The notes beneath the pieces were generated by a model, which saw nothing but the letters and a program-made list of their open reading frames with translations, was not told the origin of the DNA and did not search any database. A DNA stretch of 64,000 nt from Tilletia caries (lineage: Eukaryota; Basidiomycota; Exobasidiomycetes; Tilletiales; Tilletiaceae), in assembly GCA_032718865.1 (NCBI GenBank), contig JALUTQ010000035.1:434001-498000 (forward strand), read 5' to 3'. Of this stretch, positions 8,983 through 61,381 are shown piece by piece; positions within the stretch are counted from its first letter, which is position 1, and every line of letters starts with the position of its first letter. The translations under genes were made by a program, and so were the position numbers.

Positions 8983-11900
8983 TCAGAACGCGTAGCCGGA
9001 GCGTTGCATTTGGTAGCGTAGGAATCCACGGTCTTTTCCTTCTTCGCGACCGAAGAGCCTGAAAGTGCTCGTGGTAGTCGCTGCTCGAGTGGTCGTCGTC
9101 GTAACCGCCACCACAGGAGCTGCTGTCGTAGTCGCCACCAGAGGAGCGGTAGTTGACGAGAGACTGACCGCCGTCGCACCGAGAACCGTCACGCCAAGGG
9201 TCGTAGGATTGAGGGTGATGCACACAAGACCGAAAAGACCGCCGCACGAAACCGAGGATGTGGCTGCAGCGATGGCAGTGGTGGTCACTACGGGCACGGC
9301 AGTGGTGACTACGGGCACGGCGGTGGTAGACACGACCGGCACGGCAGTGGTGGTGATCACGGGGACGGCAGTGGTGACTACGGGCACGGCGGTGGTAGAC
9401 ACGACCGGCACAGCAGTGGTGACAGCAGGCGCGGCAGTAGTGGCGACCACGGGCGCGGCAGTAGTGGACACCGCGGGCACGGCGGCGGTGGTTGCGGGTA
9501 GAGCAGTGGACACGACCGGCACGGCAGTGGTAGCCACAGGTTGAGCACTGGACACAACCGGCACAGCAGTAGTGGCCACGGGTTGAGCGGTGGAAGCGCC
9601 CGGTACTGCATTGGAAAGCGCGAGAACGGATGTTGGAGAGAGACTGACCGCCGTCGCACCGAGAACCGTGACGCCAAGGGTTGTGGGATTGAGGGTGATG
9701 CACACAAGACCGAAAAGACCGCCGCACGAAACCGAGGGTGTGGCTGCAGCGATGGCAGTGGTGGCAACGGCCACGGCAGTGGTGCCAACCGCCACGGCAG
9801 TGGTGGTGACTACAGGCACGGCAGTGGTGGTGAGAACGGGCACGGCAGTACCTGTGGGCAAGGCACCTGAAGGAGCAATGGTCGTGGCACCAGCGTTCGA
9901 CGCCGTGGGGAAGAGGTTGCTGAGGCCGGGAAGACTCAAGGACGGGATCAGCCCGCCAGGGATGCTGATCGAGGGCAGACCCGTGGACAAGATGCCGGAA
10001 ACATCACCGATCCTGAACAGATGTAGTCAGAAAAGAAGATCGTATGTCAGTACGAAATCAAGAAGCCTGTCCCAATGAAGAGAGAGAGACTTACGGAACA
10101 GAACCGGAGACGGATGCAAGTGGAAGCGATGCCGAGACACCGCCGAGTCCACTCGTCACCGGGACGCCAACACCCGCGACACTGCTGCCAGCGAGAGCTG
10201 ACGTGACTGCCGGAAGCAGGGAAGTAAGGCCAGGAACGGTGGCCGTCACCGAGGCAACGGGAAGGGTCGCGCTGCCAGTCACACCGCTCAAGCCAGCGCC
10301 GAGGTCCACCGAGCCCGAGACAGGAGCGCTGACCGGGACATTCACAGGGATTGTGATACCGCCAACGGTCACTGAAGCGCCGATCGTGCTGCCCAGGCCG
10401 GCGTTGACAGAGATGAGACCGGTACCTGTGGGCAAGGCACCTGAAGGAGCAATGGTCGTAACACCAGGGATCGTCGCCGTGGGGAAGAGGTTGCTGAGGC
10501 CGGGGAGACTCAAGGACGGGATCAGCCCGCCAAGACCGCTACCTGTAGACAAGGCACCTGTAGACAAGGCACCTGTAGGAGCAACGCCCGTAGCACCAGT
10601 GTTCGTCGCCGTGGGGAAGAGGTTGCTGAGGCCGGGAAGACTCAAGGTCGATGAGATCAACCCGCCAGGGATGCTGATCGAGGGCAGACCCGTGGACAAG
10701 ATGCCGGAAACATCACCGATCCTGAACAGATGTAGTCAGAAAAGAAGATCGTATGTCAGTACGAAATCAAGAAGCCTGTCCCAATGAAGAGAGAGAGACT
10801 TACGGAACAGAACCGGAGACGGATGCAAGTGGAAGCGATGCCGAGACACCGCCGAGTCCACTCGTCACCGGGACGCCAACACCCGCGACACTGCTGCCAG
10901 CGAGAGCTGACGTGACTGCCGGAAGCAGGGAAGTAAGGCCAGGAACGGTGGCCGTCACCGAGGCAACGGGAAGGGTCGCGCTGCCAGTCACACCGCTCAA
11001 GCCAGCGCCGAGGTCCACCGAGCCCGAGACGGGAGCGCTGACCGGGACATTCACAGGGATTGTGATACCGCCAACGGTCACTGAGGCGCCGATCGTGCTG
11101 CCCAGGCCGGCGTTGACAGAGATGAGACCGGTACCTGTGGGCAAGGCACCTGAAGGAGCAATGGTCGTAACACCAGGGATCGTCGCCGTGGGGAAGAGGT
11201 TGCTGAGGCCGGGGAGACTCAAGGACGGGATCAGCCCGCCAAGACCGCTACCTGTAGACAAGGCACCTGTAGACAAGGCACCTGTAGGAGCAACGCCCGT
11301 AGCACCAGTGTTCGTCGCCGTGGGGAAGAGGTTGCTGAGGCCGGGAAGACTCAAGGTCGATGAGATCAACCCGCCAGGGATGCTGATCGAGGGCAGACCC
11401 GTGGACAAGATGCCGGAAACATCACCGATCCTGAACAGATGTAGTCAGAAAAGAAGATCGTATGTCAGTACGAAATCAAGAAGCCTGGCCCAATGACGAG
11501 AGAGAGACTTACGGAACAGAACCGGAGACGGATGCAAGTGGAAGCGATGCCGAGACACCGCCGAGTCCACTCGTCACCGGGACGCCAACACCCGCGACAC
11601 TGCTGCCAGCGAGAGCTGACGTGACTGCCGGAAGCAGGGAAGTAAGGCCAGGAACGGTGGCCGTCACCGAGGCAACGGGAAGGGTCGCGCTGCCAGTCAC
11701 ACCGCTCAAGCCAGCGCCGAGGTCCACCGAGCCCGAGACGGGAGCGCTGACCGGGACATTCACAGGGATTGTGATACCGCCAACGGTCACTGAGGCGCCG
11801 ATCGTGCTGCCCAGGCCGGCGTTGACAGAGATGAGACCGGTACCTGTGGGCAAGGCACCTGAAGGAGCAATGGTCGTAACACCAGGGATCGTCGCCGTGG

Positions 11901-17900: not shown

Positions 17901-20900
17901 GGACGCCAACACCCGCGACACTGCTGCCAGCGAGAGCTGACGTGACTGCCGGAAGCAGGGAAGTAAGGCCAGGAACGGTGGCCGTCACCGAGGCAACGGG
18001 AAGGGTCGCGCTGCCAGTCACACCGCTCAAGCCAGCGCCGAGGTCCACCGAGCCCGAGACGGGAGCGCTGACCGGGACATTCACAGGGATTGTGATACCG
18101 CCAACGGTCACTGAGGCGCCGATCGTGCTGCCCAGGCCGGCGTTGACAGAGATGAGACCGGTACCTGTGGGCAAGGCACCTGAAGGAGCAATGGTCGTAA
18201 CACCAGGGATCGTCGCCGTGGGGAAGAGGTTGCTGAGGCCGGGGAGACTCAAGGACGGGATCAGCCCGCCAAGACCGCTACCTGTAGACAAGGCACCTGT
18301 AGACAAGGCACCTGTAGGAGCAACGCCCGTAGCACCAGTGTTCGTCGCCGTGGGGAAGAGGTTGCTGAGGCCGGGAAGACTCAAGGTCGATGAGATCAAC
18401 CCGCCAGGGATGCTGATCGAGGGCAGACCCGTGGACAAGATGCCGGAAACATCACCGATCCTGAACAGATGTAGTCAGAAAAGAAGATCGTATGTCAGTA
18501 CGAAATCAAGAAGCCTGGCCCAATGACGAGAGAGAGACTTACGGAACAGAACCGGAGACGGATGCAAGTGGAAGCGATGCCGAGACACCGCCGAGTCCAC
18601 TCGTCACCGGGACGCCAACACCCGCGACACTGCTGCCAGCGAGAGCTGACGTGACTGCCGGAAGCAGGGAAGTAAGGCCAGGAACGGTGGCCGTCACCGA
18701 GGCAACGGGAAGGGTCGCGCTGCCAGTCACACCGCTCAAGCCAGCGCCGAGGTCCACCGAGCCCGAGACGGGAGCGCTGACCGGGACATTCACAGGGATT
18801 GTGATACCGCCAACGGTCACTGAGGCGCCGATCGTGCTGCTCAGGCCGGCGTTGACAGAGATGAGACCGGTACCTGTGGGCAAGGCACCTGAAGGAGCAA
18901 TGGTCGTAACACCAGGGATCGTCGCCGTGGGGAAGAGGTTGCTGAGGCCGGGGAGACTCAAGGACGGGATCAGCCCGCCAAGACCGCTACCTGTAGACAA
19001 GGCACCTGTAGGAGCAACGCCCGTAGCACCAGTGTTCGTCGCCGTGGGGAAGAGGTTGCTGAGGCCGGGAAGACTCAAGGTCGATGAGATCAACCCGCCA
19101 GGGATGCTGATCGAGGGCAGACCCGTGGACAAGATGCCGGAAACATCACCGATCCTGAACAGATGTAGTCAGAAAAGAAGATCGTATGTCAGTACGAAAT
19201 CAAGAAGCCTGTCCCAATGAAGAGAGAGAGACTTACGGAACAGAACCGGAGACGGATGCAAGTGGAAGCGATGCCGAGACACCGCCGAGTCCACTCGTCA
19301 CCGGGACGCCAACACCCGCGACACTGCTGCCAGCGAGAGCTGACGTGACTGCCGGAAGCAGGGAAGTAAGGCCAGGAACGGTGGCCGTCACCGAGGCAAC
19401 GGGAAGGGTCGCGCTGCCAGTCACACCGCTCAAGCCAGCGCCGAGGTCCACCGAGCCCGAGACAGGAGCGCTGACCGGGACATTCACAGGGATTGTGATA
19501 CCGCCAACGGTCACTGAGGCGCCGATCGTGCTGCCCAGGCCGGCGTTGACAGAGATGAGACCGGTACCTGTGGGCAAGGCACCTGAAGGAGCAATGGTCG
19601 TAACACCAGGGATCGTCGCCGTGGGGAAGAGGTTGCTGAGGCCGGGCACATCCGAAGTCGAGACGACACCAGGAGTCGGCACAGCACCAGTCCCGCTAGG
19701 GGAACCCGAAGTCGAGACGGCTCCAGTAGGGGTCGTGGCCAATGGCAGCAAACTGGTAACACCAGGCACACCGGTAGTAGAGACATCAGTTGCGCCAGGA
19801 GCTGCCGACGTCGAGCCAGCACCGCCAGGCAGAGAGATCGACGGGAAACCGGAGGAGGCAGCAGGAAGATCCGAAGTCGGCACAACACCAGTCGCGATAG
19901 CGGAAGTCGAAGTCGAAGGCGAGCCGGCTCCAGTGGGCAGAGAGATCGACGGGAAACCGGAGGAAGCAGCCGGAAGATCCGAAGTCGGCACAACACCAGT
20001 CGCGATAGCGGAAGTCGAAGTCGAAGGCGAGCCGGCTCCAGTGGGCAGGGCGTTCGTCGTGCCAGGGGCTGCAGAGGTCGGAATGACGCCGCCAGGAATG
20101 CTAATCAATCAAATAGAAAACATGATGGGTGGTCAGCCAAAAGAAGCTGTGGAAGTGTCAGAAAGAAAGCACTCACGAGTTGGTGGAAAGCACGTCCGTA
20201 GCTCCAGGAAGTCCCGAACTCGAGCTACCACCAGCCGGAAGATTGGAGGAAGCAGCCGGAAGACCCGAACTCGGAAGAACACCAGTCGCGATAGCGGAAG
20301 TCGAAGTCGAAGGCGAGCCGGCTCCAGTGGGCAGAGAGATCGACGGGAAACCGGAGGAAGCAGCCGGAAGATCCGAAGTCGGCACAACACCAGTCGCGAT
20401 AGCGGAAGTCGAAGTCGAAGGCGAGCCGGCTCCAGTGGGCAGGGCGTTCGTCGTGCCAGGGGCTGCAGAGGTCGGAATGACTCCGCCAGGAATGCTAATC
20501 AATCAAATAGAAAACATGATGGGTGGTCAGCCAGAAGAAGCTGTGGAAGTGTCAGAAAGAAAGCACTCACGAGTTGGTGGAAAGCACGTCCGTAGCTCCA
20601 GGAAGTCCCGAACTCGAGCTACCACCAGCCGGAAGATTGGAGGAAGCAGCCGGAAGACCCGAACTCGGAAGAACACCAGTCGCGATAGCGGAAGTCGAAG
20701 TCGAAGGCGAGCCGGCTCCAGTGGGCAGGGCGTTCGTCGTGCCAGGGGCTGCAGAGGTCGGAATGACTCCGCCAGGAATGCTAATCAATCAAATAGAAAA
20801 CATGATGGGTGGTCAGCCAAAAGAAGCTGTGGAAGTGTCAGAAAGAAAGCACTCACGAGTTGGTGGAAAGCACGTCCGTAGCTCCAGGAAGTCCCGAACT

Positions 20901-23900
20901 CGAGCTACCACCAGCCGGAAGATTGGAGGAAGCAGCCGGAAGACCCGAACTCGGAAGAACACCAGTCGCGATAGCGGAAGTCGAAGTCGAAGGCGAGCCG
21001 GCTCCAGTGGGCAAGGCGTTCGTCGTGCCAGGGGCTGCAGAGGTCGGAATGACTCCGCCAGGAATGCTAATCAATCAAATAGAAAACATGATGGGTGGTC
21101 AGCCAAAAGAAGCTGTGGAAGTGTCAGAAAGAAAGCACTCACGAGTTGGTGGAAAGCACGTCCGTAGCTCCAGGAAGTCCCGAACTCGAGCTACCACCAG
21201 CCGGAAGATTGGAGGAAGCAGCCGGAAGACCCGAACTCGGAAGAACACCAGTCGCGATAGCGGAAGTCGAAGTCGAAGGCGAGCCGGCTCCAGTGGGCAG
21301 AGAGATCGACGGGAAACCGGAGGAAGCAGCCGGAAGATCCGAAGTCGGCACAACACCAGTCGCGATAGCGGAAGTCGAAGTCGAAGGCGAGCCGGCTCCA
21401 GTGGGCAGGGCGTTCGTCGTGCCAGGGGCTGCAGAGGTCGGAATGACTCCGCCAGGAATGCTAATCAATCAAATAGAAAACATGATGGGTGGTCAGCCAG
21501 AAGAAGCTGTGGAAGTGTCAGAAAGAAAGCACTCACGAGTTGGTGGAAAGCACGTCCGTAGCTCCAGGAAGTCCCGAACTCGAGCTACCACCAGCCGGAA
21601 GATTGGAGGAAGCAGCCGGAAGACCCGAACTCGGAAGAACACCAGTCGCGATAGCGGAAGTCGAAGTCGAAGGCGAGCCGGCTCCAGTGGGCAGAGAGAT
21701 CGACGGGAAACCGGAGGAAGCAGCCGGAAGATCCGAAGTCGGCACAACACCAGTCGCGATAGCGGAAGTCGAAGTCGAAGGCGAGCCGGCTCCAGTGGGC
21801 AGGGCGTTCGTCGTGCCAGGGGCTGCAGAGGTCGGAATGACTCCGCCAGGAATGCTAATCAATCAAATAGAAAACATGATGGGTGGTCAGCCAGAAGAAG
21901 CTGTGGAAGTGTCAGAAAGAAAGCACTCACGAGTTGGTGGAAAGCACGTCCGTAGCTCCAGGAAGTCCCGAACTCGAGCTACCACCAGCCGGAAGATTGG
22001 AGGAAGCAGCCGGAAGACCCGAACTCGGAAGAACACCAGTCGCGATAGCGGAAGTCGAAGTCGAAGGCGAGCCGGCTCCAGTGGGCAGGGCGTTCGTCGT
22101 GCCAGGGGCTGCAGAGGTCGGAATGACTCCGCCAGGAATGCTAATCAATCAAATAGAAAACATGATGGGTGGTCAGCCAAAAGAAGCTGTGGAAGTGTCA
22201 GAAAGAAAGCACTCACGAGTTGGTGGAAAGCACGTCCGTAGCTCCAGGAAGTCCCGAACTCGAGCTACCACCAGCCGGAAGATTGGAGGAAGCAGCCGGA
22301 AGACCCGAACTCGGAAGAACACCAGTCGCGATAGCGGAAGTCGAAGTCGAAGGCGAGCCGGCTCCAGTGGGCAGAGAGATCGACGGGAAACCGGAGGAAG
22401 CAGCCGGAAGACCCGAACTCGGAAGAACACCAGTCGCGATAGCGGAAGTCGAAGTCGAAGGCGAGCCGGCTCCAGTGGGCAGGGCGTTCGTCGTGCCAGG
22501 GGCTGCAGAGGTCGGAATGACTCCGCCAGGAATGCTAATCAATCAAATAGAAAACATGATGGGTGGTCAGCCAAAAGAAGCTTTGGAAGTGTCAGAAAGA
22601 AAGCACTCACGAGTTGGTGGAAAGCACGTCCGTAGCTCCAGGAAGTCCCGAACTCGAGCTACCACCAGCCGGAAGATTGGAGGAAGCAGCCGGAAGATCC
22701 GAAGTCGGCACAACACCAGTCGCGATAGCGGAAGTCGAAGTCGAAGGCGAGCCGGCTCCAGTGGGCAGGGCGTTCGTCGTGCCAGGGGCTGCAGAGGTCG
22801 GAATGACTCCGCCAGGAATGCTAATCAATCAAATAGAAAACATGATGGGTGGTCAGCCAGAAGAAGCTGTGGAAGTGTCAGAAAGAAAGCACTCACGAGT
22901 TGGTGGAAAGCACGTCCGTAGCTCCAGGAAGTCCCGAACTCGAGCTACCACCAGCCGGAAGATTGGAGGAAGCAGCCGGAAGACCCGAACTCGGAAGAAC
23001 ACCAGTCGCGATAGCGGAAGTCGAAGTCGAAGGCGAGCCGGCTCCAGTGGGCAGGGCGTTCGTCGTGCCAGGGGCTGCAGAGGTCGGAATGACTCCGCCA
23101 GGAATGCTAATCAATCAAATAGAAAACATGATGGGTGGTCAGCCAAAAGAAGCTTTGGAAGTGTCAGAAAGAAAGCACTCACGAGTTGGTGGAAAGCACG
23201 TCCGTAGCTCCAGGAAGTCCCGAACTCGAGCTACCACCAGCCGGAAGATTGGAGGAAGCAGCCGGAAGATCCGAAGTCGGCACAACACCAGTCGCGATAG
23301 CGGAAGTCGAAGTCGAAGGCGAGCCGGCTCCAGTGGGCAGGGCGTTCGTCGTGCCAGGGGCTGCAGAGGTCGGAATGACTCCGCCAGGAATGCTAATCAA
23401 TCAAATAGAAAACATGATGGGTGGTCAGCCAAAAGAAGCTTTGGAAGTGTCAGAAAGAAAGCACTCACGAGTTGGTGGAAAGCACGTCCGTAGCTCCAGG
23501 AAGTCCCGAACTCGAGCTACCACCAGCCGGAAGATTGGAGGAAGCAGCCGGAAGATCCGAAGTCGGCACAACACCAGTCGCGATAGCGGAAGTCGAAGTC
23601 GAAGGCGAGCCGGCTCCAGTGGGCAGGGCGTTCGTCGTGCCAGGGGCTGCAGAGGTCGGAATGACTCCGCCAGGAATGCTAATCAATCAAATAGAAAACA
23701 TGATGGGTGGTCAGCCAGAAGAAGCTGTGGAAGTGTCAGAAAGAAAGCACTCACGAGTTGGTGGAAAGCACGTCCGTAGCTCCAGGAAGTCCCGAACTCG
23801 AGCTACCACCAGCCGGAAGATTGGAGGAAGCAGCCGGAAGACCCGAACTCGGAAGAACACCAGTCGCGATAGCGGAAGTCGAAGTCGAAGGCGAGCCGGC

Positions 23901-26900
23901 TCCAGTGGGCAGGGCGTTCGTCGTGCCAGGGGCTGCAGAGGTCGGAATGACTCCGCCAGGAATGCTAATCAATCAAATAGAAAACATGATGGGTGGTCAG
24001 CCAAAAGAAGCTTTGGAAGTGTCAGAAAGAAAGCACTCACGAGTTGGTGGAAAGCACGTCCGTAGCTCCAGGAAGTCCCGAACTCGAGCTACCACCAGCC
24101 GGAAGATTGGAGGAAGCAGCCGGAAGATCCGAAGTCGGCACAACACCAGTCGCGATAGCGGAAGTCGAAGTCGAAGGCGAGCCGGCTCCAGTGGGCAGGG
24201 CGTTCGTCGTGCCAGGGGCTGCAGAGGTCGGAATGACTCCGCCAGGAATGCTAATCAATCAAATAGAAAACATGATGGGTGGTCAGCCAAAAGAAGCTTT
24301 GGAAGTGTCAGAAAGAAAGCACTCACGAGTTGGTGGAAAGCACGTCCGTAGCTCCAGGAAGTCCCGAACTCGAGCTACCACCAGCCGGAAGATTGGAGGA
24401 AGCAGCCGGAAGATCCGAAGTCGGCACAACACCAGTCGCGATAGCGGAAGTCGAAGTCGAAGGCGAGCCGGCTCCAGTGGGCAGGGCGTTCGTCGTGCCA
24501 GGGGCTGCAGAGGTCGGAATGACTCCGCCAGGAATGCTAATCAATCAAATAGAAAACATGATGGGTGGTCAGCCAGAAGAAGCTGTGGAAGTGTCAGAAA
24601 GAAAGCACTCACGAGTTGGTGGAAAGCACGTCCGTAGCTCCAGGAAGTCCCGAACTCGAGCTACCACCAGCCGGAAGATTGGAGGAAGCAGCCGGAAGAC
24701 CCGAACTCGGAAGAACACCAGTCGCGATAGCGGAAGTCGAAGTCGAAGGCGAGCCGGCTCCAGTGGGCAGGGCGTTCGTCGTGCCAGGGGCTGCAGAGGT
24801 CGGAATGACTCCGCCAGGAATGCTAATCAATCAAATAGAAAACATGATGGGTGGTCAGCCAAAAGAAGCTGTGGAAGTGTCAGAAAGAAAGCACTCACGA
24901 GTTGGTGGAAAGCACGTCCGTAGCTCCAGGAAGTCCCGAACTCGAGCTACCACCAGCCGGAAGATTGGAGGAAGCAGCCGGAAGACCCGAACTCGGAAGA
25001 ACACCAGTCGCGATAGCGGAAGTCGAAGTCGAAGGCGAGCCGGCTCCAGTGGGCAAGGCGTTCGTCGTGCCAGGGGCTGCAGAGGTCGGAATGACTCCGC
25101 CAGGAATGCTAATCAATCAAATAGAAAACATGATGGGTGGTCAGCCAAAAGAAGCTGTGGAAGTGTCAGAAAGAAAGCACTCACGAGTTGGTGGAAAGCA
25201 CGTCCGTAGCTCCAGGAAGTCCCGAACTCGAGCTACCACCAGCCGGAAGATTGGAGGAAGCAGCCGGAAGACCCGAACTCGGAAGAACACCAGTCGCGAT
25301 AGCGGAAGTCGAAGTCGAAGGCGAACCGGCTCCAGTGGGCAGAGAGATCGACGGGAAACCGGAGGAAGCAGCCGGAAGATCCGAAGTCGGCACAACACCA
25401 GTCGCGATAGCGGAAGTCGAAGTCGAAGGCGAGCCGGCTCCAGTGGGCAGGGCGTTCGTCGTGCCAGGGGCTGCAGAGGTCGGAATGACTCCGCCAGGAA
25501 TGCTAATCAATCAAATAGAAAACATGATGGGTGGTCAGCCAAAAGAAGCTGTGGAAGTGTCAGAAAGAAAGCACTCACGAGTTGGTGGAAAGCACGTCCG
25601 TAGCTCCAGGAAGTCCCGAACTCGAGCTACCACCAGCCGGAAGATTGGAGGAAGCAGCCGGAAGATCCGAAGTCGGCACAACACCAGTCGCGATAGCGGA
25701 AGTCGAAGTCGAAGGCGAGCCGGCTCCAGTGGGCAGGGCGTTCGTCGTGCCAGGGGCTGCAGAGGTCGGAATGACTCCGCCAGGAATGCTAATCAATCAA
25801 ATAGAAAACATGATGGGTGGTCAGCCAGAAGAAGCTGTGGAAGTGTCAGAAAGAAAGCACTCACGAGTTGGTGGAAAGCACGTCCGTAGCTCCAGGAAGT
25901 CCCGAACTCGAGCTACCACCAGCCGGAAGATTGGAGGAAGCAGCCGGAAGACCCGAACTCGGAAGAACACCAGTCGCGATAGCGGAAGTCGAAGTCGAAG
26001 GCGAGCCGGCTCCAGTGGGCAGGGCGTTCGTCGTGCCAGGGGCTGCAGAGGTCGGAATGACTCCGCCAGGAATGCTAATCAATCAAATAGAAAACATGAT
26101 GGGTGGTCAGCCAAAAGAAGCTGTGGAAGTGTCAGAAAGAAAGCACTCACGAGTTGGTGGAAAGCACGTCCGTAGCTCCAGGAAGTCCCGAACTCGAGCT
26201 ACCACCAGCCGGAAGATTGGAGGAAGCAGCCGGAAGACCCGAACTCGGAAGAACACCAGTCGCGATAGCGGAAGTCGAAGTCGAAGGCGAGCCGGCTCCA
26301 GTGGGCAGGGCGTTCGTCGTGCCAGGGGCTGCAGAGGTCGGAATGACTCCGCCAGGAATGCTAATCAATCAAATAGAAAACATGATGGGTGGTCAGCCAA
26401 AAGAAGCTTTGGAAGTGTCAGAAAGAAAGCACTCACGAGTTGGTGGAAAGCACGTCCGTAGCTCCAGGAAGTCCCGAACTCGAGCTACCACCAGCCGGAA
26501 GATTGGAGGAAGCAGCCGGAAGATCCGAAGTCGGCACAACACCAGTCGCGATAGCGGAAGTCGAAGTCGAAGGCGAGCCGGCTCCAGTGGGCAGGGCGTT
26601 CGTCGTGCCAGGGGCTGCAGAGGTCGGAATGACTCCGCCAGGAATGCTAATCAATCAAATAGAAAACATGATGGGTGGTCAGCCAAAAGAAGCTTTGGAA
26701 GTGTCAGAAAGAAAGCACTCACGAGTTGGTGGAAAGCACGTCCGTAGCTCCAGGAAGTCCCGAACTCGAGCTACCACCAGCCGGAAGATTGGAGGAAGCA
26801 GCCGGAAGATCCGAAGTCGGCACAACACCAGTCGCGATAGCGGAAGTCGAAGTCGAAGGCGAGCCGGCTCCAGTGGGCAGGGCGTTCGTCGTGCCAGGAG

Positions 26901-29900
26901 CTGCAGAGGTCGGAATGACTCCGCCAGGAATGCTAATCAATCAAATAGAAAACATGATGGGTGGTCAGCCAGAAGAAGCTGTGGAAGTGTCAGAAAGAAA
27001 GCACTCACGAGTTGGTGGAAAGCACGTCCGTAGCTCCAGGAAGTCCCGAACTCGAGCTACCACCAGCCGGAAGATTGGAGGAAGCAGCCGGAAGACCCGA
27101 ACTCGGAAGAACACCAGTCGCGATAGCGGAAGTCGAAGTCGAAGGCGAGCCGGCTCCAGTGGGCAGGGCGTTCGTCGTGCCAGGGGCTGCAGAGGTCGGA
27201 ATGACTCCGCCAGGAATGCTAATCAATCAAATAGAAAACATGATGGGTGGTCAGCCAAAAGAAGCTGTGGAAGTGTCAGAAAGAAAGCACTCACGAGTTG
27301 GTGGAAAGCACGTCCGTAGCTCCAGGAAGTCCCGAACTCGAGCTACCACCAGCCGGAAGATTGGAGGAAGCAGCCGGAAGACCCGAACTCGGAAGAACAC
27401 CAGTCGCGATAGCGGAAGTCGAAGTCGAAGGCGAGCCGGCTCCAGTGGGCAAGGCGTTCGTCGTGCCAGGGGCTGCAGAGGTCGGAATGACTCCGCCAGG
27501 AATGCTAATCAATCAAATAGAAAACATGATGGGTGGTCAGCCAAAAGAAGCTGTGGAAGTGTCAGAAAGAAAGCACTCACGAGTTGGTGGAAAGCACGTC
27601 CGTAGCTCCAGGAAGTCCCGAACTCGAGCTACCACCAGCCGGAAGATTGGAGGAAGCAGCCGGAAGATTGGAGGAAGCAGCCGGAAGACCCGAACTCGGA
27701 AGAACACCAGTCGCGATAGCGGAAGTCGAAGTCGAAGGCGAACCGGCTCCAGTGGGCAGAGAGATCGACGGGAAACCGGAGGAAGCAGCCGGAAGATCCG
27801 AAGTCGGCACAACACCAGTCGCGATAGCGGAAGTCGAAGTCGAAGGCGAGCCGGCTCCAGTGGGCAGGGCGTTCGTCGTGCCAGGGGCTGCAGAGGTCGG
27901 AATGACTCCGCCAGGAATGCTAATCAATCAAATAGAAAACATGATGGGTGGTCAGCCAGAAGAAGCTGTGGAAGTGTCAGAAAGAAAGCACTCACGAGTT
28001 GGTGGAAAGCACGTCCGTAGCTCCAGGAAGTCCCGAACTCGAGCTACCACCAGCCGGAAGATTGGAGGAAGCAGCCGGAAGACCCGAACTCGGAAGAACA
28101 CCAGTCGCGATAGCGGAAGTCGAAGTCGAAGGCGAGCCGGCTCCAGTGGGCAGGGCGTTCGTCGTGCCAGGGGCTGCAGAGGTCGGAATGACTCCGCCAG
28201 GAATGCTAATCAATCAAATAGAAAAACATGATGGGTGGTCAGCCAAAAGAAGCTGTGGAAGTGTCAGAAAGAAAGCACTCACGAGTTGGTGGAAAGCACG
28301 TCCGTAGCTCCAGGAAGTCCCGAACTCGAGCTACCACCAGCCGGAAGATTGGAGGAAGCAGCCGGAAGACCCGAACTCGGAAGAACACCAGTCGCGATAG
28401 CGGAAGTCGAAGTCGAAGGCGAACCGGCTCCAGTGGGCAGAGAGATCGACGGGAAACCGGAGGAAGCAGCCGGAAGATCCGAAGTCGGCACAACACCAGT
28501 CGCGATAGCGGAAGTCGAAGTCGAAGGCGAGCCGGCTCCAGTGGGCAGGGCGTTCGTCGTGCCAGGGGCTGCAGAGGTCGGAATGACTCCGCCAGGAATG
28601 CTAATCAATCAAATAGAAAACATGATGGGTGGTCAGCCAAAAGAAGCTGTGGAAGTGTCAGAAAGAAAGCACTCACGAGTTGGTGGAAAGCACGTCCGTA
28701 GCTCCAGGAAGTCCCGAACTCGAGCTACCACCAGCCGGAAGATTGGAGGAAGCAGCCGGAAGACCCGAACTCGGAAGAACACCAGTCGCGATAGCGGAAG
28801 TCGAAGTCGAAGGCGAGCCGGCTCCAGTGGGCAGGGCGTTCGTCGTGCCAGGGGCTGCAGAGGTCGGAATGACTCCGCCAGGAATGCTAATCAATCAAAT
28901 AGAAAACATGATGGGTGGTCAGCCAAAAGAAGCTGTGGAAGTGTCAGAAAGAAAGCACTCACGAGTTGGTGGAAAGCACGTCCGTAGCTCCAGGAAGTCC
29001 CGAACTCGAGCTACCACCAGCCGGAAGATTGGAGGAAGCAGCCGGAAGACCCGAACTCGGAAGAACACCAGTCGCGATAGCGGAAGTCGAAGTCGAAGGC
29101 GAGCCGGCTCCAGTGGGCAAGGCGTTCGTCGTGCCAGGGGCTGCAGAGGTCGGAATGACTCCGCCAGGAATGCTAATCAATCAAATAGAAAACATGATGG
29201 GTGGTCAGCCAAAAGAAGCTGTGGAAGTGTCAGAAAGAAAGCACTCACGAGTTGGTGGAAAGCACGTCCGTAGCTCCAGGAAGTCCCGAACTCGAGCTAC
29301 CACCAGCCGGAAGATTGGAGGAAGCAGCCGGAAGACCCGAACTCGGAAGAACACCAGTCGCGATAGCGGAAGTCGAAGTCGAAGGCGAACCGGCTCCAGT
29401 GGGCAGAGAGATCGACGGGAAACCGGAGGAAGCAGCCGGAAGATCCGAAGTCGGCACAACACCAGTCGCGATAGCGGAAGTCGAAGTCGAAGGCGAGCCG
29501 GCTCCAGTGGGCAGGGCGTTCGTCGTGCCAGGGGCTGCAGAGGTCGGAATGACTCCGCCAGGAATGCTAATCAATCAAATAGAAAACATGATGGGTGGTC
29601 AGCCAAAAGAAGCTGTGGAAGTGTCAGAAAGAAAGCACTCACGAGTTGGTGGAAAGCACGTCCGTAGCTCCAGGAAGTCCCGAACTCGAGCTACCACCAG
29701 CCGGAAGATTGGAGGAAGCAGCCGGAAGACCCGAACTCGGAAGAACACCAGTCGCGATAGCGGAAGTCGAAGTCGAAGGCGAACCGGCTCCAGTGGGCAG
29801 AGAGATCGACGGGAAACCGGAGGAAGCAGCCGGAAGATCCGAAGTCGGCACAACACCAGTCGCGATAGCGGAAGTCGAAGTCGAAGGCGAGCCGGCTCCA

Positions 29901-32900
29901 GTGGGCAGGGCGTTCGTCGTGCCAGGGGCTGCAGAGGTCGGAATGACTCCGCCAGGAATGCTAATCAATCAAATAGAAAACATGATGGGTGGTCAGCCAA
30001 AAGAAGCTGTGGAAGTGTCAGAAAGAAAGCACTCACGAGTTGGTGGAAAGCACGTCCGTAGCTCCAGGAAGTCCCGAACTCGAGCTACCACCAGCCGGAA
30101 GATTGGAGGAAGCAGCCGGAAGACCCGAACTCGGAAGAACACCAGTCGCGATAGCGGAAGTCGAAGTCGAAGGCGAGCCGGCTCCAGTGGGCAAGGCGTT
30201 CGTCGTGCCAGGGGCTGCAGAGGTCGGAATGACTCCGCCAGGAATGCTAATCAATCAAATAGAAAACATGATGGGTGGTCAGCCAAAAGAAGCTGTGGAA
30301 GTGTCAGAAAGAAAGCACTCACGAGTTGGTGGAAAGCACGTCCGTAGCTCCAGGAAGTCCCGAACTCGAGCTACCACCAGCCGGAAGATTGGAGGAAGCA
30401 GCCGGAAGACCCGAACTCGGAAGAACACCAGTCGCGATAGCGGAAGTCGAAGTCGAAGGCGAACCGGCTCCAGTGGGCAGGGCGTTCGTCGTGCCAGGGG
30501 CTGCAGAGGTCGGAATGACTCCGCCAGGAATGCTAATCAATCAAATAGAAAACATGATGGGTGGTCAGCCAGAAGAAGCTGTGGAAGTGTCAGAAAGAAA
30601 GCACTCACGAGTTGGTGGAAAGCACGTCCGTAGCTCCAGGAAGTCCCGAACTCGAGCTACCACCAGCCGGAAGATTGGAGGAAGCAGCCGGAAGACCCGA
30701 ACTCGGAAGAACACCAGTCGCGATAGCGGAAGTCGAAGTCGAAGGCGAGCCGGCTCCAGTGGGCAGGGCGTTCGTCGTGCCAGGGGCTGCAGAGGTCGGA
30801 ATGACTCCGCCAGGAATGCTAATCAATCAAATAGAAAACATGATGGGTGGTCAGCCAAAAGAAGCTGTGGAAGTGTCAGAAAGAAAGCACTCACGAGTTG
30901 GTGGAAAGCACGTCCGTAGCTCCAGGAAGTCCCGAACTCGAGCTACCACCAGCCGGAAGATTGGAGGAAGCAGCCGGAAGACCCGAACTCGGAAGAACAC
31001 CAGTCGCGATAGCGGAAGTCGAAGTCGAAGGCGAACCGGCTCCAGTGGGCAGAGAGATCGACGGGAAACCGGAGGAAGCAGCCGGAAGATCCGAAGTCGG
31101 CACAACACCAGTCGCGATAGCGGAAGTCGAAGTCGAAGGCGAGCCGGCTCCAGTGGGCAGGGCGTTCGTCGTGCCAGGGGCTGCAGAGGTCGGAATGACT
31201 CCGCCAGGAATGCTAATCAATCAAATAGAAAACATGATGGGTGGTCAGCCAAAAGAAGCTGTGGAAGTGTCAGAAAGAAAGCACTCACGAGTTGGTGGAA
31301 AGCACGTCCGTAGCTCCAGGAAGTCCCGAACTCGAGCTACCACCAGCCGGAAGATTGGAGGAAGCAGCCGGAAGACCCGAACTCGGAAGAACACCAGTCG
31401 CGATAGCGGAAGTCGAAGTCGAAGGCGAGCCGGCTCCAGTGGGCAAGGCGTTCGTCGTGCCAGGGGCTGCAGAGGTCGGAATGACTCCGCCAGGAATGCT
31501 AATCAATCAAATAGAAAACATGATGGGTGGTCAGCCAAAAGAAGCTGTGGAAGTGTCAGAAAGAAAGCACTCACGAGTTGGTGGAAAGCACGTCCGTAGC
31601 TCCAGGAAGTCCCGAACTCGAGCTACCACCAGCCGGAAGATTGGAGGAAGCAGCCGGAAGACCCGAACTCGGAAGAACACCAGTCGCGATAGCGGAAGTC
31701 GAAGTCGAAGGCGAGCCGGCTCCAGTGGGCAAGGCGTTCGTCGTGCCAGGGGCTGCAGAGGTCGGAATGACTCCGCCAGGAATGCTAATCAATCAAATAG
31801 AAAACATGATGGGTGGTCAGCCAAAAGAAGCTGTGGAAGTGTCAGAAAGAAAGCACTCACGAGTTGGTGGAAAGCACGTCCGTAGCTCCAGGAAGTCCCG
31901 AACTCGAGCTACCACCAGCCGGAAGATTGGAGGAAGCAGCCGGAAGACCCGAACTCGGAAGAACACCAGTCGCGATAGCGGAAGTCGAAGTCGAAGTCGA
32001 ACCGGCACCAGCGGGCACACCGGAAGAGACGCCAGGAATGCTGATGAATCAAATGAAAAAAATGAAGGGAGGTCAGTCAAACCGAGTGCTGGTTGTATGA
32101 GACTGAAAACACTCACGAATTCGTGGGAATCACGTTCGTAGCTCCAGGAATACTTGAGGTGGGAAGGGCATCCGTTACACCGGATATTGACACCGTTGGC
32201 AGCAAGCTAGTGAGGCCAGACAGACTGGAAGTAGAAAGGACATTCGGAGCACTAGGGACGCCTGAGGTGGCGGCACTACCGCCAGGGATGGTGGCCGATG
32301 ACAGACCAGAGGAGGCGCCAGGAAGACCCGAAGTCGGGATGACGCCGCCAGGAATGCTGATCGAGGGCAGACCAGAAGTTGGTCTGGTGCTGAAACCTCC
32401 GAGCGCGCTGCTGAGTCCACTCCGACTGGTCGTAGTGATGGCGCTGCCTCCTGGTGCGCCGCGTGTAGAGGTAGCCCCGTCACTGCCGCCGACGGAAGTT
32501 GAAGCACCAGATCCGCCGGTCCCGGCTGAAGAAGATGATCGACTAGCAGTCGATGAAGCCGGTCGGGTCGTGCTGCCGGCAAGAAGGCTTGAACGTGTAG
32601 TAGTACTTTGAGCCTGAGTGCTGGAGCCAGGCCCGCCCAATGATGTACCTGAACCGGAACCTGTACTTGAACCAGAGCCGCTGGTGCCGGCACTGCTAGA
32701 TCCAGAACCTCCGGCAGACCCTACGCTCGAAGAAGCGCCGGAACCTGCTCTTGAACTTGTGCTCGAGGCGGAACTTTGCCCAGGACGAGAAGTGGACGCT
32801 GACGACGATGCACCGCCAGGGTAGTTGCTCTGAATGATGGTCACGTGAGATGATGTAGGAGGTCTGGTGTTGGTGATAGAAGGGATTCCGACGCTTCCGC

Positions 32901-34713
32901 CACCGCCGCGAGTAGTCGAGCCACCTAATAAGGAAGTACCAGCCGAGCGAGATCGCGAAGACATCGATGCTTGCTGACCACCTGTTCCAGGGACGTTCAC
33001 AGACGAGCCCGGACCGCCAGCGTTGGAAGAAGACCGTGTACGAGATGTGGAAGAAGGACGAATGCCCCCAGCACCGCCGCCAGGGACGGTCGCAGACGAG
33101 CCCGGACCGCCAGCGTTGGAAGAAGACCGTGTACGAGATGTGGAAGAAGGACGAATGCCCCCAGCACCGCCGCCAGGGACGGTCGCAGACGAGCCCGGAC
33201 CGCCAGCGTTGGAAGAAGACCGTGTACGAGATGTGGAAGAAGGACGAATGCCCCCAGCACCGCCGCCAGGGACGGTCGCAGACGAGCCCGGACCGCCAGC
33301 GTTGGAAGAAGACCGTGTACGAGATGTGGAAGAAGGACTAATGCCCCCAGCACCGCTGCCGCCACTGCGAGTGGTCGAACCACCTAATAAGGAAGTACCG
33401 GCTGAGCGAGATCGCGAAGACGTCGATGCTTGCTGACCACCTGTTCCAGGGACGTTCACAGACGAGCCCTGACCGCCAGCGTCGGAAGAAGAACGCGTAC
33501 GAGATGTGGAAGTAGGGCGACTGCCACCCCCTCCTCCGCCACCGGCCCCTCCTGAAGCGGATCGAGTCCGTGTGGAAGAGGCTCCGGGACCGCCATGAGA
33601 CGAGTGCTTCTTGGTCGTACTGTGTCCTTTACCACCACCAGTATGGTCCCCCTTACCACCGCCCTGACCATTTCCGTTGCCGTGACCGTGGTCATGGTGC
33701 TGGCCGTTGTTGTTGCCGTTTGCACCACCCTTACCACCGCCTTGGCCATTTCCATTGCCGTGACCGTGGTCGTTGTGCTGGCCGTTGTTGTTGCCGTTTG
33801 CACCACCCTTGCCACCGCCCTGGCCATTTCCGTTGCCGTGACCGTGGTCGTTGTGCTGGCCGTTGTTGTTGCCGTTTGCACCACCCTTGCCACCGCCCTG
33901 GCCATTTCCATTGCCGTGACCGTGGTCGTTGTGCTGGCCGTTGTTGTTGCCGTTTGCACCACCCTTGCTACCGCCCTGGCCGTTGCCATTGTCATTGCCA
34001 TGGTCGTGCTGTCCGTGGTGGTGGTCCTTGCCACCGTCCTGACCATTCTCCCACCAGTTCCACCACGGTTTTCCACCTTCCTCCTCACAGCCGTCGTCAT
34101 CATGGTGGTGACCGGGACCCTTGTGGTTCTTCTTGGGCTTGTGGACCTTGTGAGGGATATCGGGCTTCTGCTGAGGTTGGTGATCACCGTGATCTTCCTC
34201 GCAGTCGTCGTCATCGTGGTGGTGACCAGGGCCCTTGTGATTCTTGGGTTTGTGAACCTTGTGAGGAATGTCGGGCTTCTTTTGGGGTTGAGAATGGTCG
34301 TGATCCTCTTCGCAGTTGTCATTTTCGTGATGACGCCCAGGTCCCTTGTGGATTTTCTGAGGGCGGGCAGGAGTTTTGACCACGGTTGATTTGTGAGGCT
34401 TGCCGTCGTCATCCTCACAGTCGTCGTGATCGTGATGATTACCTGGGCCACGGTGTTTCTTCTTCGGTTTCTCGTGGTAGGAGGCGTGGCGTTCCTCAAC
34501 CACGTTGACCTCCGGGATGGCCCTTCCGCTCATCTCGTGAGCGTTCAATACGATGCCGCCATCGTTGGTGTTCGTCCTCTCGTCGCTGTAAGTATAAATG
34601 CAGGTGAGTTCTCGCATACGCCTGGAAAGGAGAACGGCCGCGACGACTTACAGAGGGGAGGCGCTCGTAGCGAGCGTCAGCGCCAAAATGACGCCGATCT
34701 GCAAAAGCCTCAT
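8983..34713 (-). CDS. giant secreted exon-repeat protein, ~7,183 aa, 55 exons
   Basis: Exon 1 (34713-34652) encodes a signal peptide; exon 2 is 34585-32117 and exon 3 is 32040-31861. Then come 37 family-B exons of 210, 318 or 339 nt (31784-20177), a chimeric exon 20100-19237, 13 family-A exons of 627 or 612 nt (19154-10095) and the last exon 10012-8983. All 54 introns are phase 2, and the sum is 21,552 nt, exactly 7,184 codons. Exon 2 holds four His/Asp/Cys blocks (GPGHHHDDDDCEED type), four 26-residue Asn/Gly/His repeats and a Ser/Thr/Arg-rich stretch. Exons from the end of exon 2 onward share the motif SIPGG. The last exon is Thr/Val/Ala/Pro-rich with two copies of SVSCGGLFGLVCITLNPT and ends in a basic-aromatic tail. 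There is no transmembrane segment or GPI signal at the C-terminus. I infer an extracellular or wall-associated, O-glycosylated mucin-like protein; no known family recognised. Confidence 0.82.
10013..19236 (-). repeat. family-A exon array: 13 exons between 14 near-identical introns
   Basis: The period is 709 bp (8 units) or 694 bp (5 units). Each unit is an 82-bp intron (donor GTAAGTCTCTC, acceptor TCTGTTCAG) plus a 627- or 612-nt exon. The 15-bp difference is one or two copies of ALSTG. The exon encodes Gly/Ser/Val/Thr-rich sequence starting IGDVSGILSTGLPSISIPGG and ending LPLASVSGSVP. Two intron alleles alternate (CTGTCCCAATGAAG and CTGGCCCAATGACG). Copies otherwise differ by a few bases. 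Confidence 0.9.
19237..20100 (-). repeat. chimeric B/A exon at the array junction
   Basis: This 864-nt exon begins like a family-B exon (SIPGG, then two copies of the 36-codon block) and carries a unique middle (GVPGVTSLLPLATTPTGAVS). It ends exactly like a family-A exon, from PGLSNLFPTATIPGVTTIAP to its end. Upstream of it sits a B-type intron and downstream an A-type intron. Confidence 0.85.
20101..31860 (-). repeat. family-B exon array: 37 exons between 38 near-identical introns
   Basis: The period is 286, 394 or 415 bp. Each unit is a 76-bp intron (donor GTGAGTGCTTTC, acceptor ATTGATTAG) plus an exon of 210 nt (27 copies), 318 nt (9 copies) or 339 nt (1 copy). The exon starts SIPGGVIPTSAAPGTTNALP and ends SGLPGATDVLSTNS. 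The 318-nt form holds an extra 108-nt (36-codon) internal duplication with SGFPSISLPTGAGSPSTSTS. Copies differ at a handful of recurring positions. Only the intron at 28214-28290 has a non-triplet indel (one extra A). Confidence 0.9.
27641..27682 (-). repeat. 21-bp duplication inside one B exon
   Basis: Two adjacent copies (27641-27661 and 27662-27682) encode a repeated 7-residue SNLPAAS. This makes the only 339-nt B exon. Being 21 bp it preserves frame, and it occurs in no other copy, so it is a recent event. Confidence 0.85.
33001..33372 (-). repeat. four 93-bp tandem repeats (Ser/Thr/Arg-rich)
   Basis: Four near-identical 93-bp units encode 31 residues each, including SSTSRTRSSSNAGGPGSS. 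A more diverged relative lies at about 33460-33550. The repeats are in frame within exon 2 of the giant gene. Confidence 0.85.
33661..33972 (-). repeat. four 78-bp tandem repeats (Asn/Gly/His-rich)
   Basis: The 78-bp unit encodes 26 residues built around GANGNNNGQHNDHGHGNGNG. The copies differ at only a few positions. The unit is a multiple of three and lies inside exon 2, so copy-number change keeps the frame. Confidence 0.85.
34050..34490 (-). repeat. four His/Asp/Cys-rich repeats in exon 2 of the giant gene
   Basis: Four diverged copies of about 37 codons, each with a core like GPGHHHDDDDCEED followed by a basic His/Pro/Lys linker (PDIPHKVHKPK). Each copy has one Cys in an acidic/His-rich setting, which could bind divalent metals. 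The last copy runs into a Trp-rich stretch (PWWNWWENG). Metal binding is inferred from composition only. Confidence 0.7.
34652..34713 (-). other. signal peptide exon of the giant gene
   Basis: Exon 1 encodes MRLLQIGVILALTLATSASP plus two bases of a Leu codon. It has a basic n-region, a hydrophobic core (IGVILALTLA) and small residues before a likely cleavage site near Ser-Ala-Ser. The donor is GTAAGT at 34651. The next exon begins at 34585 after ..TTACAG and continues Asp-Glu-Arg-Thr. This is the reason to place the start here rather than at in-frame codons inside exon 2. Confidence 0.8.
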
Positions 34714-36509: not shown

Positions 36510-38027
36510 ATGCCACGCCTATCAGAACGAGCGCGCTTGATTCAAAGTCTTTCCAGGTGCCTCCGTCTCTCGCTATCTGCCGCCGCACTCGACGAGGAGT
36601 TCCAGGCCGACGTCGAGGAAGCTGAAGAAGCTCTTGGACTCGTCGATAGCAACCGATACCTGTCTCGAGACCGTCTGCCAAACGACATGCGCGCACGCAG
36701 AACTCGCGCGCGCTGCGTGCAACACTTGTCCTGGAATGAAGACGACTTCAAACGTGGATTCCGAGTCACAAAAGCCCAGTTCGAGTACGTAGTCAGTCTG
36801 CTGGAGACGGACGAAGTCTTTGCACGAAAGGCGCGCGGTCGGCCTCAGCATCCAGTGCAATATCAAGTTCTTCTGGTCCTATGGAGATTGGCTCATTCCG
36901 GCACTGGTGCCACAGCCTTCCAAATCGCGGAGCGCTTTGGGGTCTCTGGTGAGAGTGCAACGGTGTTAATTTCATATCTCTCGTCGATGCTACAGCTGCT
37001 GACGGGTGTCCTCCACCCCTCTTTGTCATGTTCCATCGCAGAGGGCACGGTCATCTCTTGGACGGATCGCGTTCTCTGTGCGTTGATCGGTATCGAAGAC
37101 AGATATGTGTGGTGGCCATCTCTCGGCGAGCGTCAGCAGTTGAGGCAGCAGCTCAGCGATCACCACGGACTCGCTGGCTGTATCGGCTTCATAGATGGAA
37201 CACACATCAATTTCGCGGGCGCGCCCGCCCGCAAAGATGCGGCTGATTTCTTCACCCGACACCATCGCTACTCGTTCAACGTTCTGGCTGTGGTCGACAT
37301 CGACAGGCGCTTCCGATTTCTCCATCTGGGCTTTCCGGGATCCGCTCATGACCAGCGTGTTTACAGAGCGTGCGCCCTCTTTCAGGCGCCTGATCAGCAT
37401 TTTTCTGCAAACGAGTTCATTTTTGGGCGACTCAGGATACACGAGCGATGCTCATTTGGTGTCTTTGTTCCGTCGGTACCGTGGACAGGAAACACTGGCG
37501 CCGTCGCAGGTGAGCAGCCTGCAGTTCCTAGCTGGCCCGTGGCCGTCTCTTTGCTCATCTCATTTCATTTATATTATTCCCACATTGCGCCGATGCGTGC
37601 CTCATTTGACCGTCAGGTTGCCTTCAACCAACACGCATCACCACGCCGAGTCACGGTCGAGCATGCCTTTGGCATCTTGAAACTCCGTTGGCAGTCTCTG
37701 AGAGCCCTTCCAATCTCGCTCAGAGACGAGCTCGAGGAGTCGAGGGCAGCGTGCTGGATTCGAGCGTGCGTGGTTCTCCACAACCTTCTTGTCGACGACG
37801 CGGCGGAACCTGGTCAATGGCTCACGGCCGAGGAGCGCGAACTCGCTCAGCGAGAGCACGGCCCAGACTTCACTCGCTGGGAGCACGACGGCGATGCGGC
37901 GTTGCATGCTGTGGGTGCAGACGTAGGACAGTCTGCACCGCAAGAGGAGCAAGTGGGGCGCACAGAGGGACAGATACTGCGTCAAAAGGTTCAGGAATTT
38001 GCGCGAGTGTGGAGACAGCAACGCTAG
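36510..38027 (+). CDS. Harbinger DDE transposase (DDE_Tnp_4 type), one frameshift
   Basis: The reading frame from ATG 36510 gives about 500 residues. It shows the DDE_Tnp_4 pattern: GCIGFIDGTHINF (first Asp), SFNVLAVVDIDRRF with FLHLGFPGSAHDQRVY, then LGDSGYTSDAHLV (second Asp) and VTVEHAFGILKLRW (Glu). The LGDSGY block is in another frame. The T5 run at 37420-37424 has one base too many, and the following 107-nt intron (37510-37616) brings the frame back. Without the extra T the protein reads on normally into APSQ|VAFNQHAS. The enzyme would cut and join element ends in the nucleus. It is either a recently disabled copy or a homopolymer sequencing error. Confidence 0.8.
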   Translation: MPRLSERARLIQSLSRCLRLSLSAAALDEEFQADVEEAEEALGLVDSNRYLSRDRLPNDMRARRTRARCVQHLSWNEDDFKRGFRVTKAQFEYVVSLLETDEVFARKARGRPQHPVQYQVLLVLWRLAHSGTGATAFQIAERFGVSGESATVLISYLSSMLQLLTGVLHPSLSCSIAEGTVISWTDRVLCALIGIEDRYVWWPSLGERQQLRQQLSDHHGLAGCIGFIDGTHINFAGAPARKDAADFFTRHHRYSFNVLAVVDIDRRFRFLHLGFPGSAHDQRVYRACALFQAPDQHFSANEFIFGRLRIHERCSFGVFVPSVPWTGNTGAVAGEQPAVPSWPVAVSLLISFHLYYSHIAPMRASFDRQVAFNQHASPRRVTVEHAFGILKLRWQSLRALPISLRDELEESRAACWIRACVVLHNLLVDDAAEPGQWLTAEERELAQREHGPDFTRWEHDGDAALHAVGADVGQSAPQEEQVGRTEGQILRQKVQEFARVWRQQR

Positions 38028-60999: not shown

Positions 61000-61381
61000 C
61001 TCTCTTCCTTTTTCAAACCGCCTTGTATTAACAGCGTCGCCGACCAATTCACAAGTGCTCATTGAGAATGTACAGCGAGGGGTGTCAGAAGGGAACTTGA
61101 ATTGCGCGCCTACGGCTTCTTCGGCAAGCCGCACGTATGGAGTTGGACAAGTATGGATTGTGGTCTGTGGAGGGTTAAGAGAGTGAAGGTCGCTCAACTA
61201 GCGAGAGTCTTAGGGCTCGGGTGTTGCTGGTGAGCCATCTTGTAATGGCGGTGTAGGACGTTTGTCACGTTGGGGTCCACCGTCCTCACCGCATCACATC
61301 CCTCCGCCTGGCATCGCCAGCGTTCTTTCACCTGCTCGGTCTTGCTGAGAAAGAATGCCTTCTTAGAGCCGGGTGTTTTCC
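61000..61381. other. intergenic, nothing recognised
   Basis: 382 bp with no coding segment, RNA gene or repeat that I can support. Confidence 0.35.

What the first reader, a model, noticed from the sequence alone, without database searches (positions are those of the whole stretch)
8983..34713. A ~7,200-residue secreted exon-repeat protein filling 25.7 kb
A hand-joined model of 55 exons yields 21,552 nt with no stop and no frame conflict, from a clear signal peptide to a stop at 8983. About 80% of the protein is two related Ser/Thr/Gly/Val/Pro-rich exon families repeated 37 and 13 times. I know of no described fungal protein with this layout: a His/Asp/Cys-rich head, Asn/Gly/His repeats, a mucin-like body and a Cys-module tail. 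The size and preserved frame argue for selection on a working protein.
Basis: partly seen in the sequence, partly recalled or inferred. Interest (0 to 1): 0.95.

Follow-up and report, generated by a model that had tools for sequence, protein, structure and literature searches.

The report
Giant silk-like repeat protein of smut
A wheat bunt fungus carries a gene built from 51 copies of two intron-bearing modules that would encode a single secreted, water-hating, silk-like protein of about 7,200 amino acids, an architecture otherwise best known from spider silk genes.

Summary
Minus-strand 34713..8983 splices through 54 GT-AG introns into 55 exons, 21,552 nt, 7,183 aa plus stop, with no internal stop. 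The genome belongs to the Tilletia laevis/caries complex. All introns are phase 2: skipping any of 53 internal exons keeps the frame, and retaining any of 54 introns truncates the protein. Coding constraint is supported, modestly, by mostly synonymous variation among copies and by introns diverging faster than exons in four older copies of a B exon-intron-exon piece. That piece sits in frame inside an unrelated gene family, whose annotated proteins splice the same intron. The 5,997-residue body has no K, R, H, E, Q, C, W, Y or M; the protein has no N-glycosylation sequon and no KR/RR site. Best reading: a gene for one huge, unprocessed, hydrophobic, silk/elastin-like surface polymer, lengthened by recombination between intron-bearing modules. 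Near-identical iterated introns are known from spider Flag/MaSp2 genes and, on a small scale, Cryptococcus CNN00420; 52 here, in a fungus, is a new extreme. No transcript, read or orthologue evidence was available; function is inferred.

The parts
34652..34713 (-). exon 1: start codon and signal-peptide-like N terminus (MRLLQIGVILALTLATSASP)
   Evidence: residues 4-18 GRAVY +1.85. Signal peptide judged by eye, no predictor run
34586..34651 (-). intron 1 (66 nt, phase 2, GT-AG)
32117..34585 (-). exon 2 (823 aa): His/Asp/Lys head with 4 Cys (res. 22-205), Asn/Gly/His 26-aa repeats (206-345), Ser/Arg/Gly repeats (346 to about 756), and a seed segment (about res. 750-843) related to both A and B repeats
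   Evidence: seed-A and seed-B similarity exceed 300 of 300 shuffles
32041..32116 (-). intron 2 (76 nt), diverged relative of the A introns
   Evidence: aligned to an A intron, z 8.2, 0 of 300 shuffles as good
20177..32040 (-). A array: exons 3-40, mostly 70-aa (210 nt) or 106-aa (318 nt) modules, separated by near-identical 76-nt introns
   Evidence: introns after exons 3-40: 20, 10 and 7 of three types and one 77-nt variant
19237..20100 (-). exon 41 (288 aa): starts as A module, ends as B module
10095..19236 (-). B array: 13 exons of 204 or 209 aa (612/627 nt), bounded by 14 near-identical 82-nt introns in two types (8 and 6 copies; the last, 10094-10013, lies just after this span)
8983..10012 (-). 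exon 55: last partial B module, Thr/Ala/Val/Pro-rich tail, stop at 8985-8983; last 20 residues polar
9637..9735 (-). tail two-Cys module copy 1 (SVSCGGLFGLVCITLNPTTLGVTVLGATAVSLS)
9157..9255 (-). tail two-Cys module copy 2, same protein sequence

Best explanation
This is a functional protein-coding gene for one very large secreted structural protein of a Tilletia bunt fungus. SHOWN from sequence: a 55-exon frame; all introns phase 2; two exon-intron modules iterated in tandem; a body of about 6,000 residues without positive charges, Cys or aromatic residues other than Phe, between a charged His/Asp/Cys/Arg-rich head and a tail that holds the only other Cys. INFERRED: the signal peptide sends it out; O-mannosylation of the many Ser/Thr keeps it soluble in transit; it is not cut up by Kex2; outside the cell the Pro-Gly-rich, apolar body self-associates into an insoluble, hydrophobic, silk- or elastin-like layer or fibre on hyphae or spores, with the termini as anchoring or cross-linking ends. 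How it grew (inferred): an intron next to a seed motif in exon 2 was duplicated with its exon; because every module is 3n long and phase 2-2, unequal recombination (or exon skipping) changes length in whole modules without breaking the frame, while an unspliced intron stops translation at once.
For: Frame and splice model. 53 of 53 internal exon skips keep the frame; 54 of 54 single-intron retentions truncate. Internal exon lengths are all multiples of 3; the one odd indel lies in an intron. 6 of 8 independent exon variants synonymous, P 0.011-0.019. Four older copies of the B exon-intron-exon piece elsewhere keep the intron, its GT...CAG ends and a TACTGAC branch-like site, with the intron more diverged than the exon parts in each copy and dN/dS 0.32-0.70; the four annotated T. 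laevis/T. caries proteins found that contain the piece (P0001-P0004) splice that intron at the same place. Body composition: 0 K/R/H/E/Q/C/W/Y/M in 5,997 residues, 86 D, GRAVY +0.55; whole protein 0 sequons, only KK dibasics, starting at 346 or earlier; longest K/R-free stretch 6,394 residues. Block duplication: a five-unit run of unit types is repeated in the A array (16 of 2000 order shuffles as long). Near-identical iterated introns are what recombination is held to have produced in spider Flag and MaSp2 genes (passages of PMC3522626 and PMC1885213).
Against: No RNA, proteome or read evidence. Three protein-database searches gave no full-length relative: exons 54+55 found 13 proteins, 4 from Tilletia (the captured piece only) and 9 others that look like Thr/Ala/Val-Pro-rich low-complexity matches; the head (987 candidates of 535-1,703 aa) and the A/B junction exon (125 candidates of about 2,750-8,750 aa) found nothing at E 1e-3. 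Candidate lists were cut and length-limited. Structure models of one B exon and of the tail are useless (mean pLDDT 40.5 and 35.8), so no fibre fold is shown. No Pfam family in any of five parts. Antisense is also open in the tested B exon. The selection signal is small and weakens if the linked four-site block is counted. Localisation, O-glycosylation and self-assembly are untested.
Confidence: 0.55

Rival explanations
1. The gene is real but its array length is wrong or unstable: the assembly may have gained or lost modules, and isolates may differ widely, so '7,200 residues' is one draw from a length-variable locus.
For: Units are nearly identical and a longer run of units is repeated. Tandem repeats are a known source of assembly error (PMC6868369, title and abstract opening seen in the listing).
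Against: Units carry distinct variants in a mosaic order (14 A and 8 B exon+intron types), so it is not one unit copied by software; the frame is intact throughout.
Confidence: 0.2
2. A wall adhesin or mucin-like sensor: the body is a glycosylated stalk that holds a binding or signalling end away from the cell.
For: Signal-peptide-like start, Ser+Thr 32%, very long repetitive stalk.
Against: No GPI-type or membrane end: the last 20 residues have GRAVY -1.32 and are charged (no predictor run). No Pfam domain in head or tail. The body is hydrophobic, unlike a typical mucin stalk.
Confidence: 0.12
3. A Kex2-processed repeat precursor (repellent/KEP type) that releases many small surface peptides, as Ustilago Rep1 does.
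For: Same broad lineage (smuts); Rep1 peptides are surface active (PMC4617103 passages); a rep1 counterpart is listed for these Tilletia species (PMC9172201 table passage), which I did not compare with this gene.
Against: No KR or RR anywhere, and no K or R at all from residue 756 to 7149, so Kex2 could not cut the repeats apart.
Confidence: 0.03
4. Not a working gene: a degenerating or satellite-like array of an old exon-intron piece whose frame is intact only because the copies are recent.
For: Copies are nearly identical, and pieces of the B module occur elsewhere.
Against: Unique head and tail exons are open for 823 and 342 residues; variants favour synonymous sites; GT-AG ends in 54 of 54; the copies elsewhere are inside annotated spliced genes.
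Confidence: 0.08

Closest known systems
Spider flagelliform silk (Flag) and Argiope MaSp2 genes (PMC1885213, PMC3522626, passages)
   Same: Tandem exon-intron modules in which successive introns of one gene are nearly identical; huge secreted protein with a repetitive core between non-repetitive ends.
   Different: Fungus; no Pfam match of any kind in head or tail; introns here are 76-82 nt against 496-2,620 bp given for other silk genes in PMC3522626; two different module families in one gene; core richer in Val/Leu/Ile/Thr.
Cryptococcus neoformans CNN00420 (PMC2395259, passages)
   Same: Fungal gene whose repeats carry identical introns; intron number is polymorphic, explained by repeat expansion.
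   Different: Six introns, three of them identical and two near-identical, against 52 repeat introns here; no giant secreted protein is described in the passages read.
Ustilago maydis Rep1 repellent / Kex2-processed repeat proteins (PMC4617103, PMC7329392, passages)
   Same: Secreted repetitive surface protein of a smut; a hydrophobic surface role is proposed here too.
   Different: Rep1 is 652 aa and cut at Kex2 sites; this one is 7,183 aa and has no KR/RR site.
Elastin (recalled, no call)
   Same: Same-phase, 3n-long exons that can be skipped; Pro-Gly-rich apolar repeats.
   Different: No Lys for elastin-type cross-links in the body.
Candida megasatellite and FLO-type intragenic repeat genes (recalled; the term megasatellite was searched)
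   Same: Long coding tandem repeats in fungal surface proteins that change length.
   Different: As I recall them, those arrays lie in single exons; here each module carries its own intron.

Membership tests
Fungal gene with intron-containing tandem repeats (CNN00420 type) | near-identical introns within tandem repeats of one gene | tested here: met
   38 A-array introns in 4 types and 14 B introns in 2 types
Fungal gene with intron-containing tandem repeats (CNN00420 type) | intron number polymorphic between strains | not testable with these tools
   no relatives of this genome are held (note)
Fungal gene with intron-containing tandem repeats (CNN00420 type) | introns supported by transcripts | not testable with these tools
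   only indirect: annotated P0001-P0004 splice the homologous B intron
Spider silk (spidroin) | spidroin N- or C-terminal domain | tested here: not met
   0 Pfam families up to E 0.1 in five parts including head and tail; that Pfam holds spidroin end domains is recalled
Spider silk (spidroin) | iterated near-identical introns and apolar repetitive core | tested here: met
   supports 'works like', not membership
Kex2-processed repeat protein / repellent | Kex2 sites (KR/RR) between repeats | tested here: not met
   none in 7,183 residues; only KK at 62, 63, 123, 172, 346
Hydrophobin | small protein with eight-Cys pattern / Pfam hydrophobin | tested here: not met
   eight Cys in all, four in head and four in tail of a 7,183-aa protein; no Pfam hit in five parts
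GPI-anchored adhesin | C-terminal hydrophobic GPI-type tail | tested here: not met
   last 20 residues GRAVY -1.32; no GPI predictor run
Secreted protein | signal peptide | tested here: inconclusive
   hydrophobic start by eye and GRAVY; no predictor available

The most novel reading that the evidence does not exclude
A true fungal silk: a single unprocessed 650-kDa apolar polymer whose gene evolved, independently of spiders, the same trick of homogenised intron-exon modules, with length tuned by recombination or exon skipping in 70- and 204/209-residue steps, and whose module was also exported with its intron as an in-frame domain into another gene family.
Probability: 0.25. Interest if true: 0.85.

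Novelty: new variant of a known kind. Interest (0 to 1): 0.64.

Why it matters
It would show that the modular, intron-homogenised design of spider silk genes can arise in a fungus, and would give an extreme, well-bounded case of intron multiplication by repeat expansion (52 repeat introns in one gene). It also shows exon shuffling with the intron attached: a piece of up to about 390 bp (exon-intron-exon) captured in frame by an unrelated gene family. The protein would be nearly invisible to standard methods: the array exceeds the N50 of published Illumina assemblies of these species, and 6,394 residues in a row have no trypsin site, so such proteins may be under-counted.

Tried and rejected
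Head homologues: search with residues 1-973 gave none. Giant homologues: search scored on exon 41 with a candidate window of about 2,750-8,750 aa gave none. Both lists were cut to the candidates sharing most words, so absence is not proven. PDB sequence search with one B exon: none up to E 1. AlphaFold on one B exon and on the tail: no usable model, so no fold search was made. Hydrophobins in this genome: no hit, but the control set did not ring either, so nothing follows. Homology of A and B introns to each other: z 4.2 with 0 of 300 mononucleotide shuffles as good, but both have pyrimidine tracts, so left open. The hit on C23 looks like an unrelated low-complexity Val/Thr/Ala run. A DNA search of the genome with an A unit was not scored; the protein search with exon 41 showed A-type matches only in this locus. 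Terminal inverted repeats around the upstream transposase: none convincing. Papers: ten searches; in the rows shown (11 to 20 each) I saw no fungal gene of this size with iterated introns, the nearest being the Cryptococcus paper. This covers only that open-licence library, those terms and those rows.

Counting notes: one search tested 9 exon variants outside the block; two of them (A210 site 69, A318 site 177) are the same site, so the report uses 8. The four-site block 109-122 was left out of the main test as one linked sub-motif; with it P is 0.04-0.17. Variants were counted within four length classes holding 49 of the 51 module exons; exon 3 (180 nt) and exon 16 (339 nt) were left out, and differences between length classes were not counted.

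Full report
OBSERVATION. On the minus strand, 34713 to 8983 contains 54 introns with GT-AG ends. Removing them leaves 55 exons and 21,552 nt with a single, terminal stop: 7,183 residues. Exons 3-40 are A modules (27 of 210 nt, 9 of 318, one 339, one 180); exon 41 begins as A and ends as B; exons 42-54 are B modules (8 of 627, 5 of 612); exon 55 holds a last partial B module and the tail. A and B blocks make 79.5% of the protein.

IS IT CODING? Eight exons chosen to represent the distinct types sum to 1,915 codons, so the open frame is not merely one short open repeat copied. In exon 2 the used frame has no stop while the other five have 10 to 35. In the B exon tested (exon 43) and in exon 41 one antisense frame is also open, so frame openness alone is weak there. 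Every intron is phase 2: each of 54 single retentions ends translation early, each of 53 internal exon skips keeps the frame. Internal exon lengths are all 3n; the one odd-length indel in the array (77 for 76 nt) is in an intron. Among 49 of the 51 module exons, 8 independent exon sites vary outside one linked block; 6 are synonymous, against 30-33% expected (P 0.011-0.019; P 0.04-0.17 with the block). GC is 41% in introns and 57.9, 70.6 and 58.2% at the three codon positions.

INDEPENDENT COPIES. A piece made of about 150 nt of B exon end, the 82-nt intron and up to 157 nt of the next B exon start occurs at four other places of the genome: three on contig C5, one on C32. It begins at nearly the same point in all four (query 476 or 479) and ends at the same point (866) in three; the fourth is shorter (783). 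There it lies in frame inside genes of 407-501 codons. Four annotated proteins match these genes: P0001-P0003 from T. laevis and P0004 from T. caries. P0001 is 100% identical to its locus over both outer exons, which places this genome in the T. laevis/caries complex; the exact species was not settled. All four protein models splice out the B intron at the same position. That is annotation, not transcript data seen here. Against the array the four copies differ at 58 of 325 intron sites and 95 of 1,150 exon sites (my sums over the four rows; the copies share history and are not independent); in each copy the intron differs more, from 11% against 8% to 23% against 8% (9/81 against 26/309; 19/81 against 26/306). 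dN/dS is 0.32 to 0.70. Relatives of the host gene without B sequence exist: three for which I held DNA at the match (L060, L069, L080) have no B match, and more distant ones on C28, C35 and C21 are not among the B hits, which are a lower bound. So the piece was most likely captured from the giant gene once, with its intron, and then multiplied with its new host (inference). The reverse direction is less likely because the B start is related to the end of exon 2 of the giant gene. A more distant relic of B lies on C7. Searches of this genome with the head, the tail and exon 41 found the head, the two-Cys modules and A modules in this locus only; the tail query also gave 35-47% alignments to B-like or Ala/Thr/Pro-rich sequence that run across the first module (best candidates only).

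ORIGIN. The end of exon 2 resembles both A and B better than 300 of 300 shuffles (z 8.4 and 9.0), and intron 2 resembles the A introns (z 8.2). This fits a seed exon-intron pair in exon 2 that was duplicated, diverged into two modules, and was then expanded. Within the A array a five-unit run of unit types is repeated (16 of 2,000 shuffles as long), a sign of duplication of several units at once; no such run of three or more was found in the B array.

THE PROTEIN. Residues 844-6840 contain no K, R, H, E, Q, C, W, Y or M, 86 D and 39 F; Ser+Thr 32%; GRAVY +0.55 (A part +0.24, B part +0.88). The head is very polar (GRAVY -2.0 up to residue 345, then a Ser/Arg/Gly stretch with pI 12) and has four Cys; the tail has two 33-residue modules, identical in sequence, with two Cys each. 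There is no N-glycosylation sequon and no KR/RR in the whole protein. The last 20 residues are polar, so there is no GPI-like or membrane end. No Pfam domain in five parts. Structure prediction was uninformative.

MECHANISM. Shown: gene layout, frame logic, composition. Inferred: secretion, O-mannosylation, no Kex2 processing, self-association into an insoluble hydrophobic layer or fibre on hyphae or spores, head and tail as anchors. Ustilago maydis uses repetitive amphipathic surface peptides (Rep1) for attachment and aerial hyphae (passages of PMC4617103); a rep1 counterpart is listed for these Tilletia species (passage of PMC9172201). I did not compare it with this gene. This protein cannot be cut like Rep1, which is why I prefer a silk-like polymer.

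COMPARISON. Spider Flag and A. trifasciata MaSp2 genes have iterated exon-intron units with nearly identical introns, explained by intragenic recombination (passages of PMC3522626 and PMC1885213). Cryptococcus CNN00420 has six introns, three identical, polymorphic by repeat expansion, with EST support (passages of PMC2395259). The kind is therefore known; 52 repeat introns in two families within one fungal gene for a 7,183-residue secreted protein is, as far as the rows shown by ten searches of one library go, not described. Ten published Illumina-only assemblies of these species have N50 of 9.3-17.8 kb, which may be why the gene is not seen in the protein collection; but a PacBio hybrid assembly of T. 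controversa (scaffold N50 137 kb) exists, and the negative searches were limited by length and candidate number, so its absence there is unexplained.

VERDICT. A real and unusual gene, most likely for a giant silk-like surface protein. High interest for its architecture, moderate certainty for its being a working gene, low certainty for function until transcripts and protein are seen.

Noticed in passing
L038, L039, L040, L041 (contigs C5 and C32 of G000): A gene family of 407-501 codons without Pfam match (three of its proteins scanned) carries an in-frame exon-intron-exon piece of the giant gene's B module; related genes elsewhere lack it.
   Followed up: yes
L042:4077-4562 (+): Diverged relic of the middle of a B module (50% identical over about 103 residues) in a 161-residue open frame, with a short internal duplication of its own.
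   Followed up: partly
36510-38027 (+): 505-aa open frame with DDE_Tnp_4/Plant_tran transposase matches, 1.8 kb upstream of the gene's start and reading away from it; no clear terminal inverted repeats found.
   Followed up: partly
10044-10787 (+) and the matching place in the B units: Antisense open frames of 242-247 aa recur along the B array; read as a by-product of composition, not as genes.
   Followed up: partly
49270-52962 (+): A single open frame of 1,230 aa with no Pfam match.
   Followed up: no
61363-62253 (-): Open frame overlapping 36-bp and 84-bp tandem repeats, a second, small repeat-protein candidate.
   Followed up: no
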